The notes beneath the pieces are model-generated. The model was given only the letters and a program-made list of their open reading frames with translations. It had not been told where the DNA came from and did not search any database. From contig DSDU01000052.1 in assembly GCA_011056835.1 (NCBI GenBank), positions 1-37,819 of the forward strand: a stretch of 37,819 nt of DNA, read 5' to 3'. This DNA is from Deltaproteobacteria bacterium (lineage in GTDB: Bacteria; Desulfobacterota; Syntrophia; Syntrophales; UBA6807). The position numbers and the translations under genes were made by a program. Position 1 is the first letter of the stretch. Every line of letters begins with the position of its first letter. This document shows, in pieces, positions 4,511 through 15,466 of the stretch.

Positions 4511-5680
4511 TTATCCTAGGCTTCGCAGGATATCTCTCGCAATGATCACTCTCTGTATCTCGTTGGTCCCTTCATAGATGGATGCTATGCGGGTGTCTCT
4601 CGTAAAACGTTCTACCGGATATTCAGCGGTATACCCGTATCCTCCCAGCATCTGGACAGCGCTGCGGCATGCCCTCTCGGCGGCTTCCGTTGCGAAATAT
4701 TTTGCCATGGATGATTCCCTGGCAAAGAAATCGGTATTTTCCTTCTGATAGGCAGCATTCATGAGAAGGAGCCGTGCTGCTTCGAGTTCTGTGTAACGTT
4801 CTGCAATCATCCACTGGATAGCCTGAAAGTTAACGATAGGCTGGCCGAACTGGATCCTGTCCTTTGCGTATTTCGTTGCATAGTCCATTGCAGCAAGTCC
4901 GATTCCAAGAGCCATGGAGCCGATACCGATGCGGCCACCGGTCAGTTCCGCCACAGCCGCCCTGAATCCGTCGTTGAGTTTTCCCATAAGGCGGTCTTTG
5001 GGGAAACGGCAGTTGTCAAATATCAGCTCGTTCGTTGCTGAGGCCTTTTGGCCCATTTTGTGTTCGGCCCTTCCTACGGTGAAGCCCGGGTCATTCTGTT
5101 CTAAAACAAAGGTGCTGATGCCTCTACCTTTTTTTGCATCCTTGTCGGTTACCGCCCAGAGCACGTAACAGCCGGCATATTCAGCGCTCGTGATGAAGAT
5201 TTTGCCGCCATTGACGACCCATTCATTTCCGTCAAGCACCGCTTGAGTGCGCATATCGGACGGGTCCGAACCGGCTGAGGTCTCCGTCAGGGCAAAGCCG
5301 CCCGCAGAGTACTCGCCTGAGCAAATCTTAGAGCAATATTTTTGCTTCTGCTCTTCATTACCAATGGCCTGGATTACTTCGGCGACCATATTGTTCACCG
5401 ACATGGTAACTGCCGTGGAAGCGCAGGCTCTGCCTATTTCCGTCATGGCCACGCTGAATGCAATGACTCCTGCCTCGGAACCACCATATTCGGCACTCAC
5501 ATTGATGCCCATGAGACCAAGCTCGGCAAGCTTTTTTAGATTGCCAAGAAATATCTTCTTATTTTCTTCACTGTAAGGATTTTCGTCAAGCTGCGCCGCA
5601 ACCGGCTCAAGTTCGTTCTGGGCAAAGTTTCTTGCCGTGTCCTGTATCATTCTTTGGATTTCATTCAGTTCTAAATTCAT
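4511..5680 (-). CDS. Acyl-CoA dehydrogenase (FAD)
   Basis: 389 residues, the normal length for a short/medium-chain type enzyme. Landmarks are GFALTETSAGSDPSDM (FAD/substrate loop, about 128-143), the SxGxI-type region, DRIQFGQPIVNFQAIQW at about 278-294, QMLGGYGYT near 340, and the catalytic base E370 in IYEGTNEIQR. It oxidises an acyl-CoA to the 2-enoyl-CoA in the cytoplasm, normally passing electrons to ETF. No etfAB is present here. AAGGAG precedes ATG 5680. It is bracketed by terminators (4420-4469 and 5781-5812), so it is its own transcription unit between the CaiB pair and gctAB-1. The neighbours suggest that its substrate is the product of one of these transferases. Chain-length preference cannot be read from sequence. 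Confidence 0.95.
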   Translation of the reverse strand: MNLELNEIQRMIQDTARNFAQNELEPVAAQLDENPYSEENKKIFLGNLKKLAELGLMGINVSAEYGGSEAGVIAFSVAMTEIGRACASTAVTMSVNNMVAEVIQAIGNEEQKQKYCSKICSGEYSAGGFALTETSAGSDPSDMRTQAVLDGNEWVVNGGKIFITSAEYAGCYVLWAVTDKDAKKGRGISTFVLEQNDPGFTVGRAEHKMGQKASATNELIFDNCRFPKDRLMGKLNDGFRAAVAELTGGRIGIGSMALGIGLAAMDYATKYAKDRIQFGQPIVNFQAIQWMIAERYTELEAARLLLMNAAYQKENTDFFARESSMAKYFATEAAERACRSAVQMLGGYGYTAEYPVERFTRDTRIASIYEGTNEIQRVIIARDILRSLG

Positions 5681-5780
5681 GTCCCCTCTCCTTAACTTTG
5701 ATAAGTTACCGACTATTGATCAAAAAAACATATGAAAGTCAAGTCTTTATTTATCCATAGCTATTCGCCGGAATAATGCA

Positions 5781-5812
5781 AAAAAAAGAGGGGGATAAAT
5801 CCCCCTCTTTTT
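5781..5812 (-). terminator. Terminator of gctAB-1
   Basis: Near-perfect hairpin: AAAAAGAGGGGGA and TCCCCCTCTTTTT arms around a 3-4-nt loop, flanked by A and T runs on both sides. It lies 14 bp after the gctB-1 stop and could work in both directions. Confidence 0.9.
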
Positions 5813-5825
5813 GCGGCATGCCTTC

Positions 5826-6725
5826 CTAGCCGTCAATGATCTTCTGGATTTCGGGCGGATACTCTACCTTCTGCGGCAGGAAGATGAGTTCCGCATCGAC
5901 GAACTCTCTCAGAACGAACAGCTCTCGATATGTCGGATGAGCGGTCTCGCCCTTCAGTCTCGACACGTTCAAGTCAAAACCGCAATTATCCTTCACCTGA
6001 TCTACGCTGACGCCGGGATGTGTCGTATCCAGATACATCATGCCTTCATCATCAAACCCGTAGGTGGCAAAGTTGGAAACAACCGCACAGGGGCCGGATT
6101 CGGCAAACGGGGTGCCTGCCCAGACCTCTTTTTTCGGTTTCCACTTACCGTCTTTCCAGTCGGTGCAGTACCAGCCGGGTGTTGTGGTATAATCATTTTT
6201 CTCAAGGAACCGTCTCTTTTCCTGGAGGATGATGTACGCTACCCGGTGGGACATGGTGCCGATGTCGGAATTGCCGCCGCTTCCCGTGAACCGGTTCTGC
6301 GGGGAATAGTAATCTCCGATGGAGGTGACATTGACGCCGCCGTACTTATCGATAGCCGCACCGCCGAGGAAGCCAAGTGTGACAAAGTGCTGCTGCAGGT
6401 AATAACCGAAGGTGTCAACCAGTCCACCCAGTGTTGAACTCATGTTGGCTGCCCTCTGGTCACACACCGACATGGGAACATGCATGGTCTTCCCATCACA
6501 GATGCCCGCTTCGTAGATGAGCAGGGCGTTAGGAGCGACTGTCAGATTTGCCGTCATGATTCCGACCATGGGAAGCCCCGTTCCCGCGAAGACGATATCG
6601 TCGTTTCGGACCTGGTGGGCAATGGCGATCGCCATCAGCTCAGGGAGGATAAACTCTCCAACTTTTGCCGGCTCATCAGGGATAAGGTCGATCAACGCCA
6701 TCAGTTCTTCTATCGATTTTTTCAT
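5826..6725 (-). CDS. gctB: Glutaconate-type CoA-transferase, beta subunit (copy 1)
   Basis: 299 residues; GctB of Acidaminococcus is about 266, so this one is longer, mainly through an N-terminal helix and an insert before the C-terminal third (around WYCTDWKDGKWKPKKEVW). Family marks are VFAGTGLPMVG at 45-55, the catalytic glutamate E72 in LLIYEAGICD (VESG in GctB), GGAAIDKYGGVN followed by SIGDYYSPQNRFTGSGG, and EKRRF. Type I enzymes exchange CoA through a glutamyl-CoA intermediate. It follows its alpha subunit by 19 nt, with AAAGGGGG as ribosome binding site. The dicarboxylate or fatty-acid substrate is not certain, and homologues acting as hydrolases (IpdAB-like) exist, but the retained nucleophile favours a transferase. 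Confidence 0.9.
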   Translation of the reverse strand: MKKSIEELMALIDLIPDEPAKVGEFILPELMAIAIAHQVRNDDIVFAGTGLPMVGIMTANLTVAPNALLIYEAGICDGKTMHVPMSVCDQRAANMSSTLGGLVDTFGYYLQQHFVTLGFLGGAAIDKYGGVNVTSIGDYYSPQNRFTGSGGNSDIGTMSHRVAYIILQEKRRFLEKNDYTTTPGWYCTDWKDGKWKPKKEVWAGTPFAESGPCAVVSNFATYGFDDEGMMYLDTTHPGVSVDQVKDNCGFDLNVSRLKGETAHPTYRELFVLREFVDAELIFLPQKVEYPPEIQKIIDG

Positions 6726-6744
6726 TATCAGTTCCCCCTTTCTC

Positions 6745-7800
6745 TTAATAACCGCTTCGTGCGACGGACAATGGCATCGTTACCCTTGGTGCAGGTTTCT
6801 TTCCCCTCAATATCCGTGTGCTGTAGCCGGTCGTGCTGTCTGCCTTGAGCTCCAGCAATCTCTTGGCACCAACCTTGACAATAAGATCGTTCCAGGTTGC
6901 CGGACCGTATATCCACTCATCGACCCACTTCTTCATATCGTCTTCGTTTCTCGAAGCTGCGTCCATTCCCCTCATGAAGGGAGCATCATAGTCGTAGTAG
7001 AATGGTACCGCGCTTGGATAACCACCATAGGGACACTCCACGATGGCATCGACGGTGAAATAGGGGATCTGGTTGAGATTCGGTTCCTTCCTCAGTTCCG
7101 ATTCGGGAACGATCTCTTCGCAGGTTATGATGACCTTGTCGCAGGCGAAGACCAGTTCCTTGTCGATCGTTCCGATCCCTCGCCACCGAGCCGTTCCCTT
7201 TTCCCCGCACTGTGCCACATGGATAAGGGCGATATCCGGCCGTGCAGCCGGTAACAGCATGACCTGCCCGTCACCCCAGAATGGCTCATCCATCTGTATA
7301 TATTTTTTCTTCGATATTTTCGGGTGCTTGCCGTCCCTCAACCCAGCCTTGCCGAGTGCGTCATATTTGTCGTCATAAAGGTCCGATCCCAATGGCGCAT
7401 AATAGGGGATAAAGGGAGCACCGATTGCGCCGGCAAGGAATCTCATGGCGATAGCTCCGTGGGAATAGTCTTCCAGAATAACTTCACCCCTCTGATATCG
7501 TTTGTTCAAGTTGATGTCGAGCTTGCCTGCCATTTCCCCCCAGCCCATCCAGTCGGTTTCATAAATCTTCATGGCGCCGACGGCATTCAACAGCCATGAG
7601 CTGCAGCTTCCATGCCTGTCCAGAACATGAAAGTCTTTTCTGCCCTGCCTGATCGCTTCCCATGTCAGAGCCACCGGGTTTCTGTTGAAGCCGGTAAAGC
7701 CGCTGAAGGCGATGACCTGACCGTCTTTCACGTATCTTTTTACCGCTTCCTCAAGCGATAAGATTTCCGCTTTTTTCGTTTTTTCACGAAGTCTGGGCAT
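6745..7800 (-). CDS. gctA: Glutaconate-type CoA-transferase, alpha subunit (copy 1)
   Basis: 351 residues, slightly longer than classical GctA (about 320). Recognisable segments are LSLEEAVKRYVKDGQVIAF at 15-33, GFTGFNRNPVALTWEAIRQG, EDYSHGAIAMRFLAGAIGAPFIP, the alpha-subunit pattern IHVAQCGEKGTARWRGIG, and VIITCEEIVPESELRKEPN. The alpha subunit shapes the acid-binding pocket while the nucleophile lies on beta. GGAGG lies 6 nt before ATG 7800. A sigma-54-like site ends about 33 bp upstream. Regulation by the PAS activator at the left edge is an inference from this and from proximity. Confidence 0.9.
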   Translation of the reverse strand: MPRLREKTKKAEILSLEEAVKRYVKDGQVIAFSGFTGFNRNPVALTWEAIRQGRKDFHVLDRHGSCSSWLLNAVGAMKIYETDWMGWGEMAGKLDINLNKRYQRGEVILEDYSHGAIAMRFLAGAIGAPFIPYYAPLGSDLYDDKYDALGKAGLRDGKHPKISKKKYIQMDEPFWGDGQVMLLPAARPDIALIHVAQCGEKGTARWRGIGTIDKELVFACDKVIITCEEIVPESELRKEPNLNQIPYFTVDAIVECPYGGYPSAVPFYYDYDAPFMRGMDAASRNEDDMKKWVDEWIYGPATWNDLIVKVGAKRLLELKADSTTGYSTRILRGKKPAPRVTMPLSVARSGY

Positions 7801-7830
7801 AATTCCCTCCTTTCAAGATGTTAATGTAAA

Positions 7831-7847
7831 TTGCCACTCGCTTGCCC
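7831..7847 (-). promoter_or_regulatory. Candidate sigma-54 (-24/-12) promoter of gctAB-1
   Basis: On the minus strand the site reads GGGCAA-GCGAG-TGGCA against TGGCAC-N5-TTGCA. Eight of eleven positions match, including the invariant GG and GC with exact 10-bp spacing. The predicted start would be near 7821, giving a 20-nt leader with a good Shine-Dalgarno. Position and the nearby sigma-54 activator support it; it was not tested against background frequency. Confidence 0.5.
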
Positions 7848-8295
7848 AAATGTGATTCTAAATAATGCAGAAAATAATGAAGTGTGTCACCTCCTTTCAT
7901 TGCGAATTTTCATGGTATGCATAGCCATCTACCATTTGTCCGGCATTGTGATATCTTGACGCATGCAGTGCCTGATAACTTAAGAAGCGCCATATAGTCG
8001 CCGCTGGAGGCTGCTCAGCATTCCATCTCGATTTTTCTATTGTCTTCTCGCCCAAACGGAATGTTTCCTTTATCATCCTGATCGGCACAGTATACGGCGT
8101 ATCAGAATTTATTTATATGAATTCAATCGAGATAAACGGTAAACGTGGGGAAGGTAATGGAAAGAACCAAACGATTTAATTCCGACGGCTCTGGGTGGTA
8201 CTACTCCGGTTGGAAATGATCACAGACTTCACGCAATGACGACTTCGCGTCGTTGATTCTTTCTGCAATACCTCTTTGCCTATCCCCCCTGGTAA

Positions 8296-8309
8296 TATAC
8301 GTACGTATA
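8296..8309. promoter_or_regulatory. Perfect palindrome TATACGTACGTATA, possible operator
   Basis: 14-bp perfect dyad in an A+T-rich setting (AA-TATACGT-ACGTATA-GTTAA). The size and symmetry resemble binding sites of TetR-family dimers, but no such regulator gene is in the window. It lies about 40 bp past the polX stop codon and 490 bp upstream of gctA-1. Confidence 0.35.
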
Positions 8310-8348
8310 GTTAATATGCCACAATGTGTCAAGGGAAAAAGTGGATTT

Positions 8349-11289: not shown

Positions 11290-11737
11290 CATGAAAAGAT
11301 CATTATCTGTTCGATCCCACTCGTCGTGTCTTATCACGACCTGGCACCTCCCATTCTCAGGCATGACTCGGGTTCTTCAATACCCTCCTTTTCATATCTT
11401 CAGAGGCGGTTGAAAAACGCCCACCTGCGGCTTCGCCCCCATCATTTGTCGCTGCGACGTACCTGTAAGTATGACTCCCTCCTCGGGATTTCGTGTGGCT
11501 TAAAACCGGACATTATTGAAGGGTCTCGTAGTCGGACTTTTTCAGTGACCCGTCCTGGATACACCGTGACATGGCGTACCATTCACAACAGGTTACTTTT
11601 GACTTGACCCTGAGGGCCCTTTTAGTATAGAGCGCACCACGGTAAGGGAAGCCTTGCCGCGCGACGTATCCTGAAGTGAAGCGGAATTGCTGAAGGGACT
11701 CGCATGACACGAGGAGAAGAAGTTGGGAGGTATGAGT
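11290..11737. other. Intergenic region upstream of gctAB-2
   Basis: No gene is supported. It contains a copy of the dispersed repeat (11405-11525) and the leader of gctA-2. I could not find a convincing promoter or sigma-54 site on the plus strand. Confidence 0.5.
11405..11525 (+). repeat. Dispersed intergenic repeat, copy 1
   Basis: Starts GGCGGTTGAAAAACGCCC and runs through TCGCTGCGACGTAC, CTCGGGATTTCG to a right end GGACATTATTGAA. The two ends are degenerate inverted repeats (GTTGAAAAACG against its complement-like end). The same layout recurs, diverged, at 15534-15666 and, inverted, at 23695-23900. Confidence 0.65.
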
Positions 11738-12826
11738 ATGATTAAAAAGAAGACAGGTTCGTTGATTGAAAATGTGTCGAGTTTGCAACAAAGCGAACTC
11801 AGTAAAATCGCAGAAGACCCCTTCCAATGGTGGGGGCTGTCACCTGAAGATGCCCGTAAGATCATGGTTAACAAACCAAAGGATCTTCGAGATAAGAGGA
11901 TGACACTGAAAGAATCGGTTGCCAAGTATATTCATGGCAAAGAAGGGCTGAATATAGCCATTGGAGGTTTTGTCAACACACGTCCTCCGGTGGCTCTCAT
12001 ACATGAGATAATTCGCCAGGGAGCTAAGGACCTGACATTGTCGTTCCAGTCAAGTTCCATATGTCCCGAATTGTTGGCCGGGGCAATGCTCCTCTATCCA
12101 CAGCAGGTATCGATCAAGCGGGTAGAATTGGCATGGTGGGGATACGAAGTCATCGGTATCGCCCCTTTGTTGAGACACCTGATCTCCAACGGCATGATAA
12201 AGTTGGACGACTATACCAACTATGGCATGTCCGCCCGGTTCAAGGCGGCGTCAATGGGGCTCGAATTTCTTCCGGTCAGAGACCACGGTGGATCGGATAT
12301 GGAACTCGTCAACAGGGGTACCATGGTTGAGAGCCCCTTCACCGGCAAGAATACCTATCTTGTGCCGGCGTGTTATCCCGACGTGGGGCTGATTCATGCA
12401 ACGGCGGCGGATATGTACGGTAACTGCCGGATCTTCGGGGCTCTGTGTACATGTCCTGAGATCTCAATAGCTGCGGGACATACCATCGTAACAACAGAGC
12501 AGATCATACCCAACGAAAACATCAGAACCTATCCGAATCTGACGGAAATACCCTATACGGCAGTTGATGCCGTTGTAGAGCAGCGTTTCGGCGGATATCC
12601 TGGAGCATGTTACGGGAATTACTGGTTTGATATGGAACATATCCTTATGTTCAGAAGTGCGTCGGATGAATTCAGGAAAACGGGAAATGCGGATAAACTG
12701 AAAAAATATTACGAAGAATATATCTTCGGATGTGAAACATACGACGATTTCCTGAGCAAACTGCCCTATACGACATTGAAAAAAATCAGAGAGATGGACG
12801 GCGGACAACCGATCATATTGTCATAA
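11738..12826 (+). CDS. gctA: Glutaconate-type CoA-transferase, alpha subunit (copy 2)
   Basis: 362 residues from ATG 11738, chosen because GGGAGG lies 7 nt upstream; earlier in-frame starts (TTG 11723, ATG 11732) overlap that site. The core begins at about residue 49 (MTLKESVAKYIHGKEGLNIAIGG, closely matching classical GctA starts). Therefore about 48 residues (containing EDPFQWWGLSPEDARKIMV) form an N-terminal extension absent from the family and from copy 1. Later marks are DYTNYGMSARFKAASMGLEFLPV, LIHATAADMYGNCRIFG and TIVTTEQIIPNENIRTYPN. It forms the acid-binding subunit with the next gene. The two gct systems are strongly diverged, so they probably serve different acids. Confidence 0.9.
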   Translation: MIKKKTGSLIENVSSLQQSELSKIAEDPFQWWGLSPEDARKIMVNKPKDLRDKRMTLKESVAKYIHGKEGLNIAIGGFVNTRPPVALIHEIIRQGAKDLTLSFQSSSICPELLAGAMLLYPQQVSIKRVELAWWGYEVIGIAPLLRHLISNGMIKLDDYTNYGMSARFKAASMGLEFLPVRDHGGSDMELVNRGTMVESPFTGKNTYLVPACYPDVGLIHATAADMYGNCRIFGALCTCPEISIAAGHTIVTTEQIIPNENIRTYPNLTEIPYTAVDAVVEQRFGGYPGACYGNYWFDMEHILMFRSASDEFRKTGNADKLKKYYEEYIFGCETYDDFLSKLPYTTLKKIREMDGGQPIILS

Positions 12827-12864
12827 GCGTTCCGTCATGGCTGTTAAGTGAGGAGGTTATTATA

Positions 12865-13647
12865 ATGGCTGATTGTACACCCTTTGAAATGATTGCATAC
12901 ACCGGATCACGAGTATTGGAAGATAATAAAATAGTATTTGTCGGAACAGGATTACCGATCATTGCATCAATGCACGCCCAGCTGACCCATGCCCCGGGTC
13001 TCGGGATTATTTTCGAGGCAGGTCCCCTGACACCGGTCCTGGAAATGGGCATGCCCCTGTCGGTTGGAGATACAAGAGCTTGCCGCAAGGCATGTTATCT
13101 TAAGGGTCTCTGTGCCGTGTTCGAGCTGACACAGCGGGGTCACGCCGATTACGCCTTTATCGGCGGCGCGCAGATCGATATGTACGGGAATGTGAATTCC
13201 ACGTTCGAAGGCGGAACCTATACCGAGGCTCTGACACGGTTTCCGGGAAGCGGAGGCGCCGGTGCAATGGCGGCTAACTGTGAGAAATCCATTATCATCA
13301 TGGCCCTTGAAAAGAGACGATTCGTAAATAAACTGGAATTCCTGACCAGCATCGGGTTTGGTGACGGGTCACCCGATTACCGCGAGAAGGCAGGTGTCAT
13401 GGGGTCCGGGCCGTACCGTGTTATTACGAACGAAGCCCTCTTTGGATTTGATGAAGATTCGAAGCGTATGGTGCTTCTTGAGGTAGCACCGGGAAGAACG
13501 GCGGAACAAATTCAGGAAAAAGTCAGTTTTGAGTTGATCATTTCTCCGGGACTGAAAGAAATGGCGGAGCCGACAGATGAGGACTTGAGGCTTCTCAGAA
13601 CAGAATGTGATCCAGACGGATATTTTCTTGCCCGGAAGGTTAAGTGA
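12865..13647 (+). CDS. gctB: Glutaconate-type CoA-transferase, beta subunit (copy 2)
   Basis: 260 residues, the standard GctB length. VFVGTGLPIIASM at 24-36 is followed by the catalytic glutamate E51 in IIFEAGPLTP, then GGAQIDMYGNVNSTFEGG, TRFPGSGGAGAMAANC and EKRRFVNKLEFLTSIGFGDG, a close match to classical GctB. It lacks the inserts of copy 1. GAGGAGG precedes ATG 12865, and the gap from the alpha gene is 38 nt, consistent with one transcript. A terminator-like hairpin follows. The substrate is unknown; glutaconate, 3-oxoacids or longer acyl groups are all possible for this fold. Confidence 0.92.
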   Translation: MADCTPFEMIAYTGSRVLEDNKIVFVGTGLPIIASMHAQLTHAPGLGIIFEAGPLTPVLEMGMPLSVGDTRACRKACYLKGLCAVFELTQRGHADYAFIGGAQIDMYGNVNSTFEGGTYTEALTRFPGSGGAGAMAANCEKSIIIMALEKRRFVNKLEFLTSIGFGDGSPDYREKAGVMGSGPYRVITNEALFGFDEDSKRMVLLEVAPGRTAEQIQEKVSFELIISPGLKEMAEPTDEDLRLLRTECDPDGYFLARKVK

Positions 13648-13891: not shown

Positions 13892-14245
13892 TTAATCTGA
13901 TGACCGGCCGGCGTTCATTTCATCGGAAAGTGTCGCAAGGAATTCTGCAGGAATTATTGCTGCTATGGAATCGGCGTCGATTTCGAGGACTTCGCACAGA
14001 GCGTAGAGAAACCCTTCAAACAGTGTTATGAGGGCGTAGACCCCACCGTCTTCGCTGCCAGACAGAACACCCTCCTCGATAGTTGTTCTGATAATTTCAT
14101 CTTCGGCGAGCTTGAGAGATGACCGTTCCAGGATCGTAAGGTACTCTTCGGGACGCAGAAAATCGTTTCTCATAAGCATTTTGAGCTGGAATCCCGCACA
14201 ATAGTAAAAGGCTGCCCGTTGTCGTGTTTCTTCTTCTGAAAGCAC
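13892..14245 (-). CDS. Small acidic helical protein of unknown function, coupled to ycaO
   Basis: 117 residues starting with GTG 14245, three bases after the ycaO stop; its ribosome binding site AAAGGAGG lies inside the last codons of ycaO. I do not recognise the family. The sequence is acidic, probably all helical, with a Cys at 16 and a hydrophobic patch (VYALITLFEGFLYALCEVLEI, spread over about 69-89) that looks like an amphipathic helix or packing interface rather than a membrane segment. There is no signal peptide. It is not TfuA-like, the usual YcaO partner. Tight coupling suggests near-stoichiometric expression with YcaO, so a partner, substrate-presenting protein or regulator is possible; all of that is inference. 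Confidence 0.75.
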   Translation of the reverse strand: MLSEEETRQRAAFYYCAGFQLKMLMRNDFLRPEEYLTILERSSLKLAEDEIIRTTIEEGVLSGSEDGGVYALITLFEGFLYALCEVLEIDADSIAAIIPAEFLATLSDEMNAGRSSD

Positions 14246-14248
14246 GGT

Positions 14249-15466
14249 TCAGCCTCCTTTGCCCAAGGCATCGTAGAGTCTGTCACCCCGCCGGGAGCTA
14301 TCAAAACAGTATACTTCCATTCCGGGAACAATCATTCTTGCCGTGGGTATGCCGATTTTCTTTCTCGTGAGATCCACGGCGATCACCTTGCGGAATCCTC
14401 GGTCATTCAATTTGCCCATCATTGTTGTAATATCGCGGAATATGTCGTCACTGAAGTCTGCATTCAGATCATGAAGATTTTTTTGTCCGTAGGCACAGAA
14501 ACGATAGTCTTCCTCGCTGTTCATTCCGTCAGTATTATCCAGATACGAAAGTTTCCAGTCGTCAATCCCGAATTTCTGAATAAAGAGTCCGCGGGTCGTT
14601 GCGATTTCCAGCAATGCCCTGACAAGGGCGACTTTCGGATCGAGATGGGCTCCAAAACCGTCAATCGGCATGAGTTTCCTGTAAACCAGGTCATTTGAAA
14701 AAGCTGCAATAACGGGTACGCCGATGTCGGTGGTAATATCTTTGGCTACGACTTCAATCTCCGCATGATTGAATCTTTCAATAATATCGATTATGAATCG
14801 GTTATCCGGGTGGTCGTTGATACCCAGGGCGTCGCTTGCCGCTTCGGTGAACTTGGCGATACTCCAGGCATCCCGTTCAATTACCTCCGCCAAGGCATGT
14901 GATACCGCTTCCTCAATCGTATTACCCGCGGCGATGCCATTGGTATGGGTATTGATCAATGGCGTATCGTCCAGATAAAAAGGATGAAAAACGGTACATG
15001 CAGGTACGAGAATTTCAACATCATTCGCAAGATCGAATCCCCACGTCCAGTAAAGTTTCCGGTCGTGATCGTAACGACTGAATTGAGGAAGAATGAGCTC
15101 CTCAGGGTTGAGCACGGAGTATCGTGCGGACAGAGAGCTGTAACTGCCGAGCACGAGGCTTCCTGCATATTCAGGCCTGAACTCGGATGAAAATCGTTCC
15201 GCCGACTCCATGGATAAAGAAACCTGAGCCTGTATCTTCGAGAGGCCCTTTCCGGTGTGATCCGTTCGTGAATCGTCGGGACGTATTCTGTGGCAGGTGA
15301 ACACGGGGATGCCGAGCCTGTCGAGATCCGTCACATCGCCGACGTCTTTCATGCCGATCGTTTCTTTCATTGTTTCTATAAATCTGAGCGTGTCGTCGGG
15401 TGTACGGGATCGGTGAGTCTCGCGGATGTACGCCTTGGGGCACTCCTTCAGTGTTAGGGCCGGCAT
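14249..15466 (-). CDS. ycaO: YcaO family ATP-dependent cyclodehydratase/thioamidation protein, methanogenesis-marker-1 type
   Basis: 405 residues from ATG 15466, which has GGAG 8 nt upstream; the frame stays open to 15562, but that part runs into repeat DNA. The start region (LKECPKAYIRETHRSRTP) and TDLDRLGIPVFTCHRIRP resemble the YcaO group that thioamidates McrA in methanogens. ATP-binding marks are SMESAERF (E87, E90), EVIERDAW (E194, E197, R198, D199) and ALLEIATTRG (E286, R291), where the usual Gln beside Arg is Thr. YcaO enzymes activate backbone amides with ATP to make azolines or, with a sulfur donor, thioamides. No RiPP precursor, TfuA or Mcr gene is in the window. The last residues are GKGG, encoded by the next gene's ribosome binding site, instead of the proline-rich tail of some family members. 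Confidence 0.88.
   Translation of the reverse strand: MPALTLKECPKAYIRETHRSRTPDDTLRFIETMKETIGMKDVGDVTDLDRLGIPVFTCHRIRPDDSRTDHTGKGLSKIQAQVSLSMESAERFSSEFRPEYAGSLVLGSYSSLSARYSVLNPEELILPQFSRYDHDRKLYWTWGFDLANDVEILVPACTVFHPFYLDDTPLINTHTNGIAAGNTIEEAVSHALAEVIERDAWSIAKFTEAASDALGINDHPDNRFIIDIIERFNHAEIEVVAKDITTDIGVPVIAAFSNDLVYRKLMPIDGFGAHLDPKVALVRALLEIATTRGLFIQKFGIDDWKLSYLDNTDGMNSEEDYRFCAYGQKNLHDLNADFSDDIFRDITTMMGKLNDRGFRKVIAVDLTRKKIGIPTARMIVPGMEVYCFDSSRRGDRLYDALGKGG

What the first reader, a model, noticed from the sequence alone, without database searches (positions are those of the whole stretch)
13892..15466. YcaO of the McrA-thioamidation type coupled to an unknown 117-residue protein, without Mcr, TfuA or a peptide precursor
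The YcaO protein has the ATP-binding Glu/Arg residues and N-terminal features of the methanogen marker-1 group, but the context looks bacterial and no methyl-CoM reductase is present. The small helical partner is initiated from a ribosome binding site inside the last YcaO codons, which suggests fixed stoichiometry. A peptide-backbone modification of an unknown protein is the simplest hypothesis; the small protein may be the substrate, an activator or a sulfur-donor adaptor.
Basis: partly seen in the sequence, partly recalled or inferred. Interest (0 to 1): 0.65.

Follow-up and report, generated by a model that had tools for sequence, protein, structure and literature searches.

The report
YcaO, helper and CoA-transferase module
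A bacterial enzyme of the kind that swaps oxygen for sulfur in a protein's backbone is inherited together with a small unknown helper protein and a fatty-acid-type CoA-transferase, which suggests, but does not prove, that the CoA-transferase carries a modification so far known in only two natural proteins.

Summary
Window 14249-15466(-) encodes an intact YcaO closest to the archaeal McrA-thioamidation group (290.6 bits, below its 365 cut-off); 13892-14245(-) encodes a family-less helical protein (SMALL) whose ribosome-binding site overlaps the last YcaO codons. McrA and TfuA are absent. SMALL directly follows YcaO in 21 of 29 loci. The third partner is a glutaconate-type CoA-transferase, A2B2, usually followed by an acyl-CoA dehydrogenase; all are in this window at 4511-7800(-). 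Among 155 genomes of the order, this YcaO clade and A2 occur together in 30, alone in 7 and 6, neither in 112. Fourteen YcaO copies have split from SMALL: ten of these sit beside sulfur-delivery genes, while SMALL left behind stays with A2B2. Best reading: YcaO puts a thioamide into the CoA-transferase or a companion enzyme, with SMALL as client-side adaptor. Shown: gene identities, conserved pair, linkage, co-inheritance, sulfur context. Inferred: the reaction, the client, SMALL's role. SMALL as the substrate is disfavoured, because several genomes have YcaO and A2B2 without it. Mass spectrometry would decide.

The parts
14249..15466 (-). YcaO, 405 aa, McrA-thioamidation-like; proposed catalyst
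13892..14245 (-). SMALL, 117-aa helical protein without a known family; proposed client-side adaptor
14253..14260 (-). Shine-Dalgarno AAAGGAGG of SMALL inside the last YcaO codons
   Evidence: read directly
6745..7800 (-). A2, glutaconate-type CoA-transferase subunit A with an invariant C-terminal tail; proposed client
5826..6725 (-). B2, CoA-transferase subunit B, keeps the equivalent of the catalytic Glu; proposed client
4511..5680 (-). ACAD2, acyl-CoA dehydrogenase that usually follows A2B2; alternative client
8304..8332 (-). promoter-like TTGACA-17-TATACG ahead of A2, as in relatives
   Evidence: read; consensus match only

Best explanation
A dedicated protein-thioamidation module. YcaO uses ATP to activate a backbone amide and replaces its oxygen with sulfur. 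SMALL is a non-catalytic adaptor or chaperone that presents the client. The client is the CoA-transferase A2B2, or less likely ACAD2 or another enzyme of the same fatty-acid-type gene cluster. Sulfur comes from free sulfide or the cell's persulfide machinery, without TfuA. Shown: gene identities, the conserved YcaO-SMALL pair, linkage and co-inheritance with A2B2, the sulfur-gene neighbourhood of the unlinked YcaO clade. Inferred: that the reaction is thioamidation (about 0.7), that the client is A2 or B2 (about 0.45 to 0.5 given thioamidation), that SMALL is an adaptor (about 0.5).
For: Nearest to a proven thioamide-forming group: TIGR03266 and MJ1094; no C-terminal PxPxP. YcaO-SMALL adjacency in 21 of 29 SMALL loci. 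YcaO-SMALL-A2-B2-ACAD2 colinear in nine loci; same genes on the same strand, more spread out, in the window and L054. Co-inheritance of YcaO and A2 in 155 genomes 30/7/6/112, in 53 genera 17/1/4/31, and in three genomes fetched for YcaO-SMALL outside the order or of unknown order, two of them with A2 on another contig. The 14 unlinked YcaOs form one clade (99/99); 10 of the 14 lie near MnmA, FdhD, IscU or cysteine desulfurase on the same strand, none of the 21 linked ones does. Seven of the eight SMALL copies without an adjacent YcaO are beside A2.
Against: No modification has been observed. Six genomes have A2 and no YcaO of any kind, two of them with SMALL, and their A2, B2 and ACAD2 show no consistent residue change. 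Seven genomes have YcaO and A2 without detectable SMALL, six of them from one family. The co-occurrence statistic ignores phylogeny, and how common A2 is outside the order was not measured.
Confidence: 0.42

Rival explanations
1. YcaO thioamidates a protein encoded elsewhere (ribosomal or other), as E. coli YcaO does with uL16. A2B2 goes with it because both belong to the same anaerobic fatty-acid-type lifestyle.
For: E. coli YcaO acts on a distant housekeeping protein (PMC13063428). A2 occurs without YcaO in six genomes. Some YcaOs have no A2 nearby (L057, L061, L064, L202).
Against: Tight gene order with A2B2 in nine loci, and SMALL staying with A2 after YcaO has moved. Not of the uL16-modifying type: NF040716 29 bits against 700.
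Confidence: 0.27
2. SMALL itself is the thioamidated protein and acts as a modified cofactor-like subunit of A2B2.
For: SMALL is translationally coupled to YcaO and stays with A2B2.
Against: YcaO and A2B2 without detectable SMALL in seven genomes, SMALL without YcaO in two. SMALL is poorly conserved (34-47%) and predicted as a compact helical fold.
Confidence: 0.12
3. YcaO makes an azoline or amidine on a peptide (RiPP pathway) and SMALL is a precursor or recognition protein.
For: YcaO enzymes of RiPP clusters do this (PMC13063428, introduction).
Against: SagD-type score below cut-off (144.8 against 219), no PxPxP, no conserved small peptide gene between SMALL and A2, catabolic context.
Confidence: 0.06

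Closest known systems
McrA-glycine thioamidation YcaO (TIGR03266, methanogenesis marker 1; MJ1094, PDB 6pe3; Methanosarcina acetivorans YcaO, PMC5589413)
   Same: Full-length sequence match, ATP-motif residues, no TfuA needed in some members (M. jannaschii, M. kandleri)
   Different: Bacterial, below the family cut-off, no McrA in the genome, partner SMALL instead of TfuA, linked to a CoA-transferase
E. coli YcaO / uL16 thioamidation (NF040716; PMC13063428)
   Same: YcaO fold; acts on an intact protein; no TfuA
   Different: 29 bits against a cut-off of 700; no small partner known; different context
YcaO-TfuA pairs of thioamitide RiPPs (PMC8120280)
   Same: YcaO followed by a second gene in a coupled pair
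   Different: SMALL is not TfuA by Pfam; no precursor peptide found
Glutaconate CoA-transferase (PDB 1poi), for A2B2
   Same: Full-length match of both subunits and the Glu of the ESG motif
   Different: A2 has about 20 extra C-terminal residues ending in an invariant LSVARSGY; B2 has extensions and an insert

Membership tests
McrA-glycine thioamidation YcaO (TIGR03266) | score above the curated cut-off of 365 bits | tested here: not met
   290.6 bits
McrA-glycine thioamidation YcaO (TIGR03266) | McrA in the same genome | tested here: not met
   PF02249 no match in own genome, controls ring
McrA-glycine thioamidation YcaO (TIGR03266) | thioamide product | not testable with these tools
   needs mass spectrometry
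YcaO superfamily (PF02624) | profile match and ATP-binding motif residues | tested here: met
   E 9e-74; Sx3ExxER and Ex3Hx3ExxER conserved
E. coli YcaO type (NF040716) | score above the cut-off of 700 bits | tested here: not met
   29.2 bits
Azoline-forming SagD type (TIGR03604) | score above the cut-off of 219 bits and C-terminal PxPxP | tested here: not met
   144.8 bits; no PxPxP in 16 members
TfuA-YcaO pair | TfuA (PF07812) beside YcaO | tested here: not met
   no TfuA in own genome; SMALL has no Pfam match
Glutaconate-type CoA-transferase (A2B2) | both subunits align over full length and keep the catalytic Glu | tested here: met
   1poi E 4e-56 and 3e-49; E72 of B2 aligned with the ESG Glu
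Glutaconate-type CoA-transferase (A2B2) | transferase activity and substrate | not testable with these tools
   needs enzyme assay

The most novel reading that the evidence does not exclude
A third thioamidated protein in nature: a CoA-transferase of anaerobic fatty-acid-type degraders, modified by a bacterial McrA-like YcaO together with a previously unrecognised helical adaptor family that takes the place of TfuA in client recognition.
Probability: 0.32. Interest if true: 0.85.

Novelty: new variant of a known kind. Interest (0 to 1): 0.62.

Why it matters
Backbone thioamides in proteins are described so far for McrA and uL16 only (PMC13063428, introduction). A bacterial YcaO with a defined small partner and a specific, expressible candidate client would make an orphan enzyme group testable, offer a way of client recognition without TfuA, and suggest that thioamidation tunes catabolic enzymes in anaerobes living near the energy limit, as the growth defects on low-energy substrates suggest for M. 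acetivorans (PMC5589413).

Tried and rejected
The type-I CoA-transferase next door (11723-13647, plus) as the partner: it is near the pair only in G000, G001 and G003 and about 30% identical to A2. A conserved precursor peptide between SMALL and A2: only a promoter-like site and repeated AAAGGAGG leader elements recur; small ORFs match only among close relatives. Residue differences between A2, B2 or ACAD2 of YcaO-positive and YcaO-negative genomes: none consistent. Fold search with the SMALL model: no significant Foldseek match, best VIA Z 5.1, uninformative for helical proteins. Model of A2: mean pLDDT 50.6, not used. SMALL against PDB sequences: nothing credible. Homology between SMALL and YcaO: hhalign probability 10%, treated as chance. 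Literature on YcaO with CoA-transferases or syntrophs: nothing relevant in the held library.

Full report
Observation. The window holds an intact YcaO gene (14249-15466, minus) and, 3 nt downstream, a GTG-started gene for a 117-aa protein, here called SMALL (13892-14245). The Shine-Dalgarno sequence of SMALL, AAAGGAGG, lies in the last codons of YcaO. This is the only YcaO of the genome. It matches TIGR03266 (290.6 bits, cut-off 365) far better than the E. coli group (29 bits, cut-off 700) or SagD (144.8, cut-off 219), and MJ1094 over its full length. McrA and TfuA were not found in the genome, which is rated 99% complete.

The pair is conserved. SMALL homologues were found in 18 of 60 relatives, in 29 of 155 genomes of the order with a profile, and in 6 of 345 genomes sampled over the phylum, one of them outside the order. 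One relative, G039, is a single contig of 3,179,300 bases, the size I recall for Syntrophus aciditrophicus, so the order is probably Syntrophales (inference). In 21 of the 29 SMALL loci fetched, SMALL directly follows YcaO, mostly by 0-13 nt. SMALL belongs to no Pfam or NCBIfam family, is acidic (median pI 4.4), and is predicted with confidence as six helices (mean pLDDT 94) without a clear structural match.

The third gene. Clustering of neighbours showed CoA-transferase genes. Typing separated the Gct-like pair beside SMALL in this window (11723-13647) from a second pair, A2B2 (5826-7800), whose members are 72-94% identical across loci. The order YcaO-SMALL-A2-B2-ACAD2 is colinear in nine loci (L056, L058, L059, L060, L062, L065, L189, L191, L193); in this window and in L054 the same genes lie on the same strand with DNA polymerase X and other genes between. 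A2 and B2 align with glutaconate CoA-transferase (1poi) over full length, and B2 keeps the Glu of the ESG motif, which I know as the catalytic residue. In several loci enoyl-CoA hydratase, 3-hydroxybutyryl-CoA dehydrogenase and thiolase genes are close, so the setting is a beta-oxidation-type gene cluster. A2B2-ACAD2 has its own promoter-like sequence and a conserved leader, also in the window, so enzymes and the YcaO-SMALL pair can be expressed at different levels (inference).

Co-inheritance. In 155 genomes of the order this YcaO clade and A2 occur together in 30, YcaO alone in 7, A2 alone in 6, neither in 112 (Fisher 1.5e-19, not corrected for phylogeny). Five of the seven YcaO-only genomes are under 85% complete. 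By genus the table is 17/1/4/31 (3e-9). Three further genomes fetched because they carry YcaO and SMALL (G328, G487, G488) all carry A2, two of them on a different contig.

When the pair splits. Fourteen of the YcaO copies fetched are not beside SMALL, and they form one clade (99/99). Ten of the fourteen lie near sulfur-mobilisation genes on the same strand: MnmA 29-69 nt upstream in three, and combinations of FdhD, CysE, MnmA, IscU and cysteine desulfurase in the other seven. None of the 21 linked loci shows this. SMALL left behind stays with A2B2: seven of the eight SMALL copies without an adjacent YcaO are beside A2. So YcaO goes with the sulfur supply and SMALL with the CoA-transferase. 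This is the main argument for SMALL as client-side adaptor and A2B2 as client. It is genetic evidence, not biochemistry.

Mechanism proposed. YcaO enzymes phosphorylate a backbone amide after attack of a nucleophile; with sulfide the product is a thioamide (PMC13063428). This clade lacks PxPxP, and TfuA is absent; M. jannaschii and M. kandleri show that TfuA is not obligatory for McrA thioglycine (PMC5589413). The site is unknown. One candidate is the A2 C-terminal tail, G.KPAPR....LSVARSGY, which is invariant to its last residue in the 12 aligned sequences and absent from paralogues and GctA. It is basic, while SMALL and YcaO are acidic. It is also kept in YcaO-less genomes, so it is only a lead.

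Against. Six genomes have A2 without any YcaO, and their A2, B2 and ACAD2 show no consistent change. Seven genomes with YcaO and A2 lack detectable SMALL, six from one family. The modification would have to be an optional improvement, as for McrA, where its loss is tolerated (PMC5589413). A client encoded elsewhere is the strongest rival.

Comparison. It works like McrA thioamidation (inferred), but strict membership fails: below cut-off and no McrA. It is not the uL16-modifying type, not a SagD-type cyclodehydratase, and not a TfuA pair. I file it as a new variant of a known kind.

Verdict. The finding is real and more interesting than stated: a conserved YcaO-SMALL pair with a specific candidate client, testable by one co-expression and mass-spectrometry experiment.

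Noticed in passing
window 11723-13647(+): A second, Gct-like CoA-transferase pair stands beside SMALL in convergent orientation; the same pair is near YcaO-SMALL in G001 and G003 but is only about 30% identical to A2.
   Followed up: partly
L021:4819-5988, L022:1-1131, L194:11213-12370: A radical-SAM protein is encoded 13-203 nt upstream of YcaO-SMALL in these three loci; it has only weak matches, among them to the methyl-coenzyme M reductase glutamine C-methyltransferase family.
   Followed up: partly
gap between SMALL and A2 in L058, L059, L062, L065, L069, L071, L185, L187, L189, L191, L193; window 7801-8348: A sigma-70-like promoter is followed by a long leader with repeated AAAGGAGG and AGGGGG elements far from any long reading frame.
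   Followed up: no
SMALL residues 57-96 and YcaO residues 166-205: Weak resemblance between the second half of SMALL and the ATP-motif region of YcaO (hhalign E 0.003, probability 10%; one BLAST hit at E 8e-4); probably chance.
   Followed up: no
L077:8258-10522 (G039): Other genomes of the order carry a different, longer YcaO of about 755 aa, not part of this clade.
   Followed up: no
L066:9159-9620 (G025): A divergent SMALL (34% identical) stands beside neither YcaO nor A2, in a genome with A2 elsewhere and no YcaO found.
   Followed up: no
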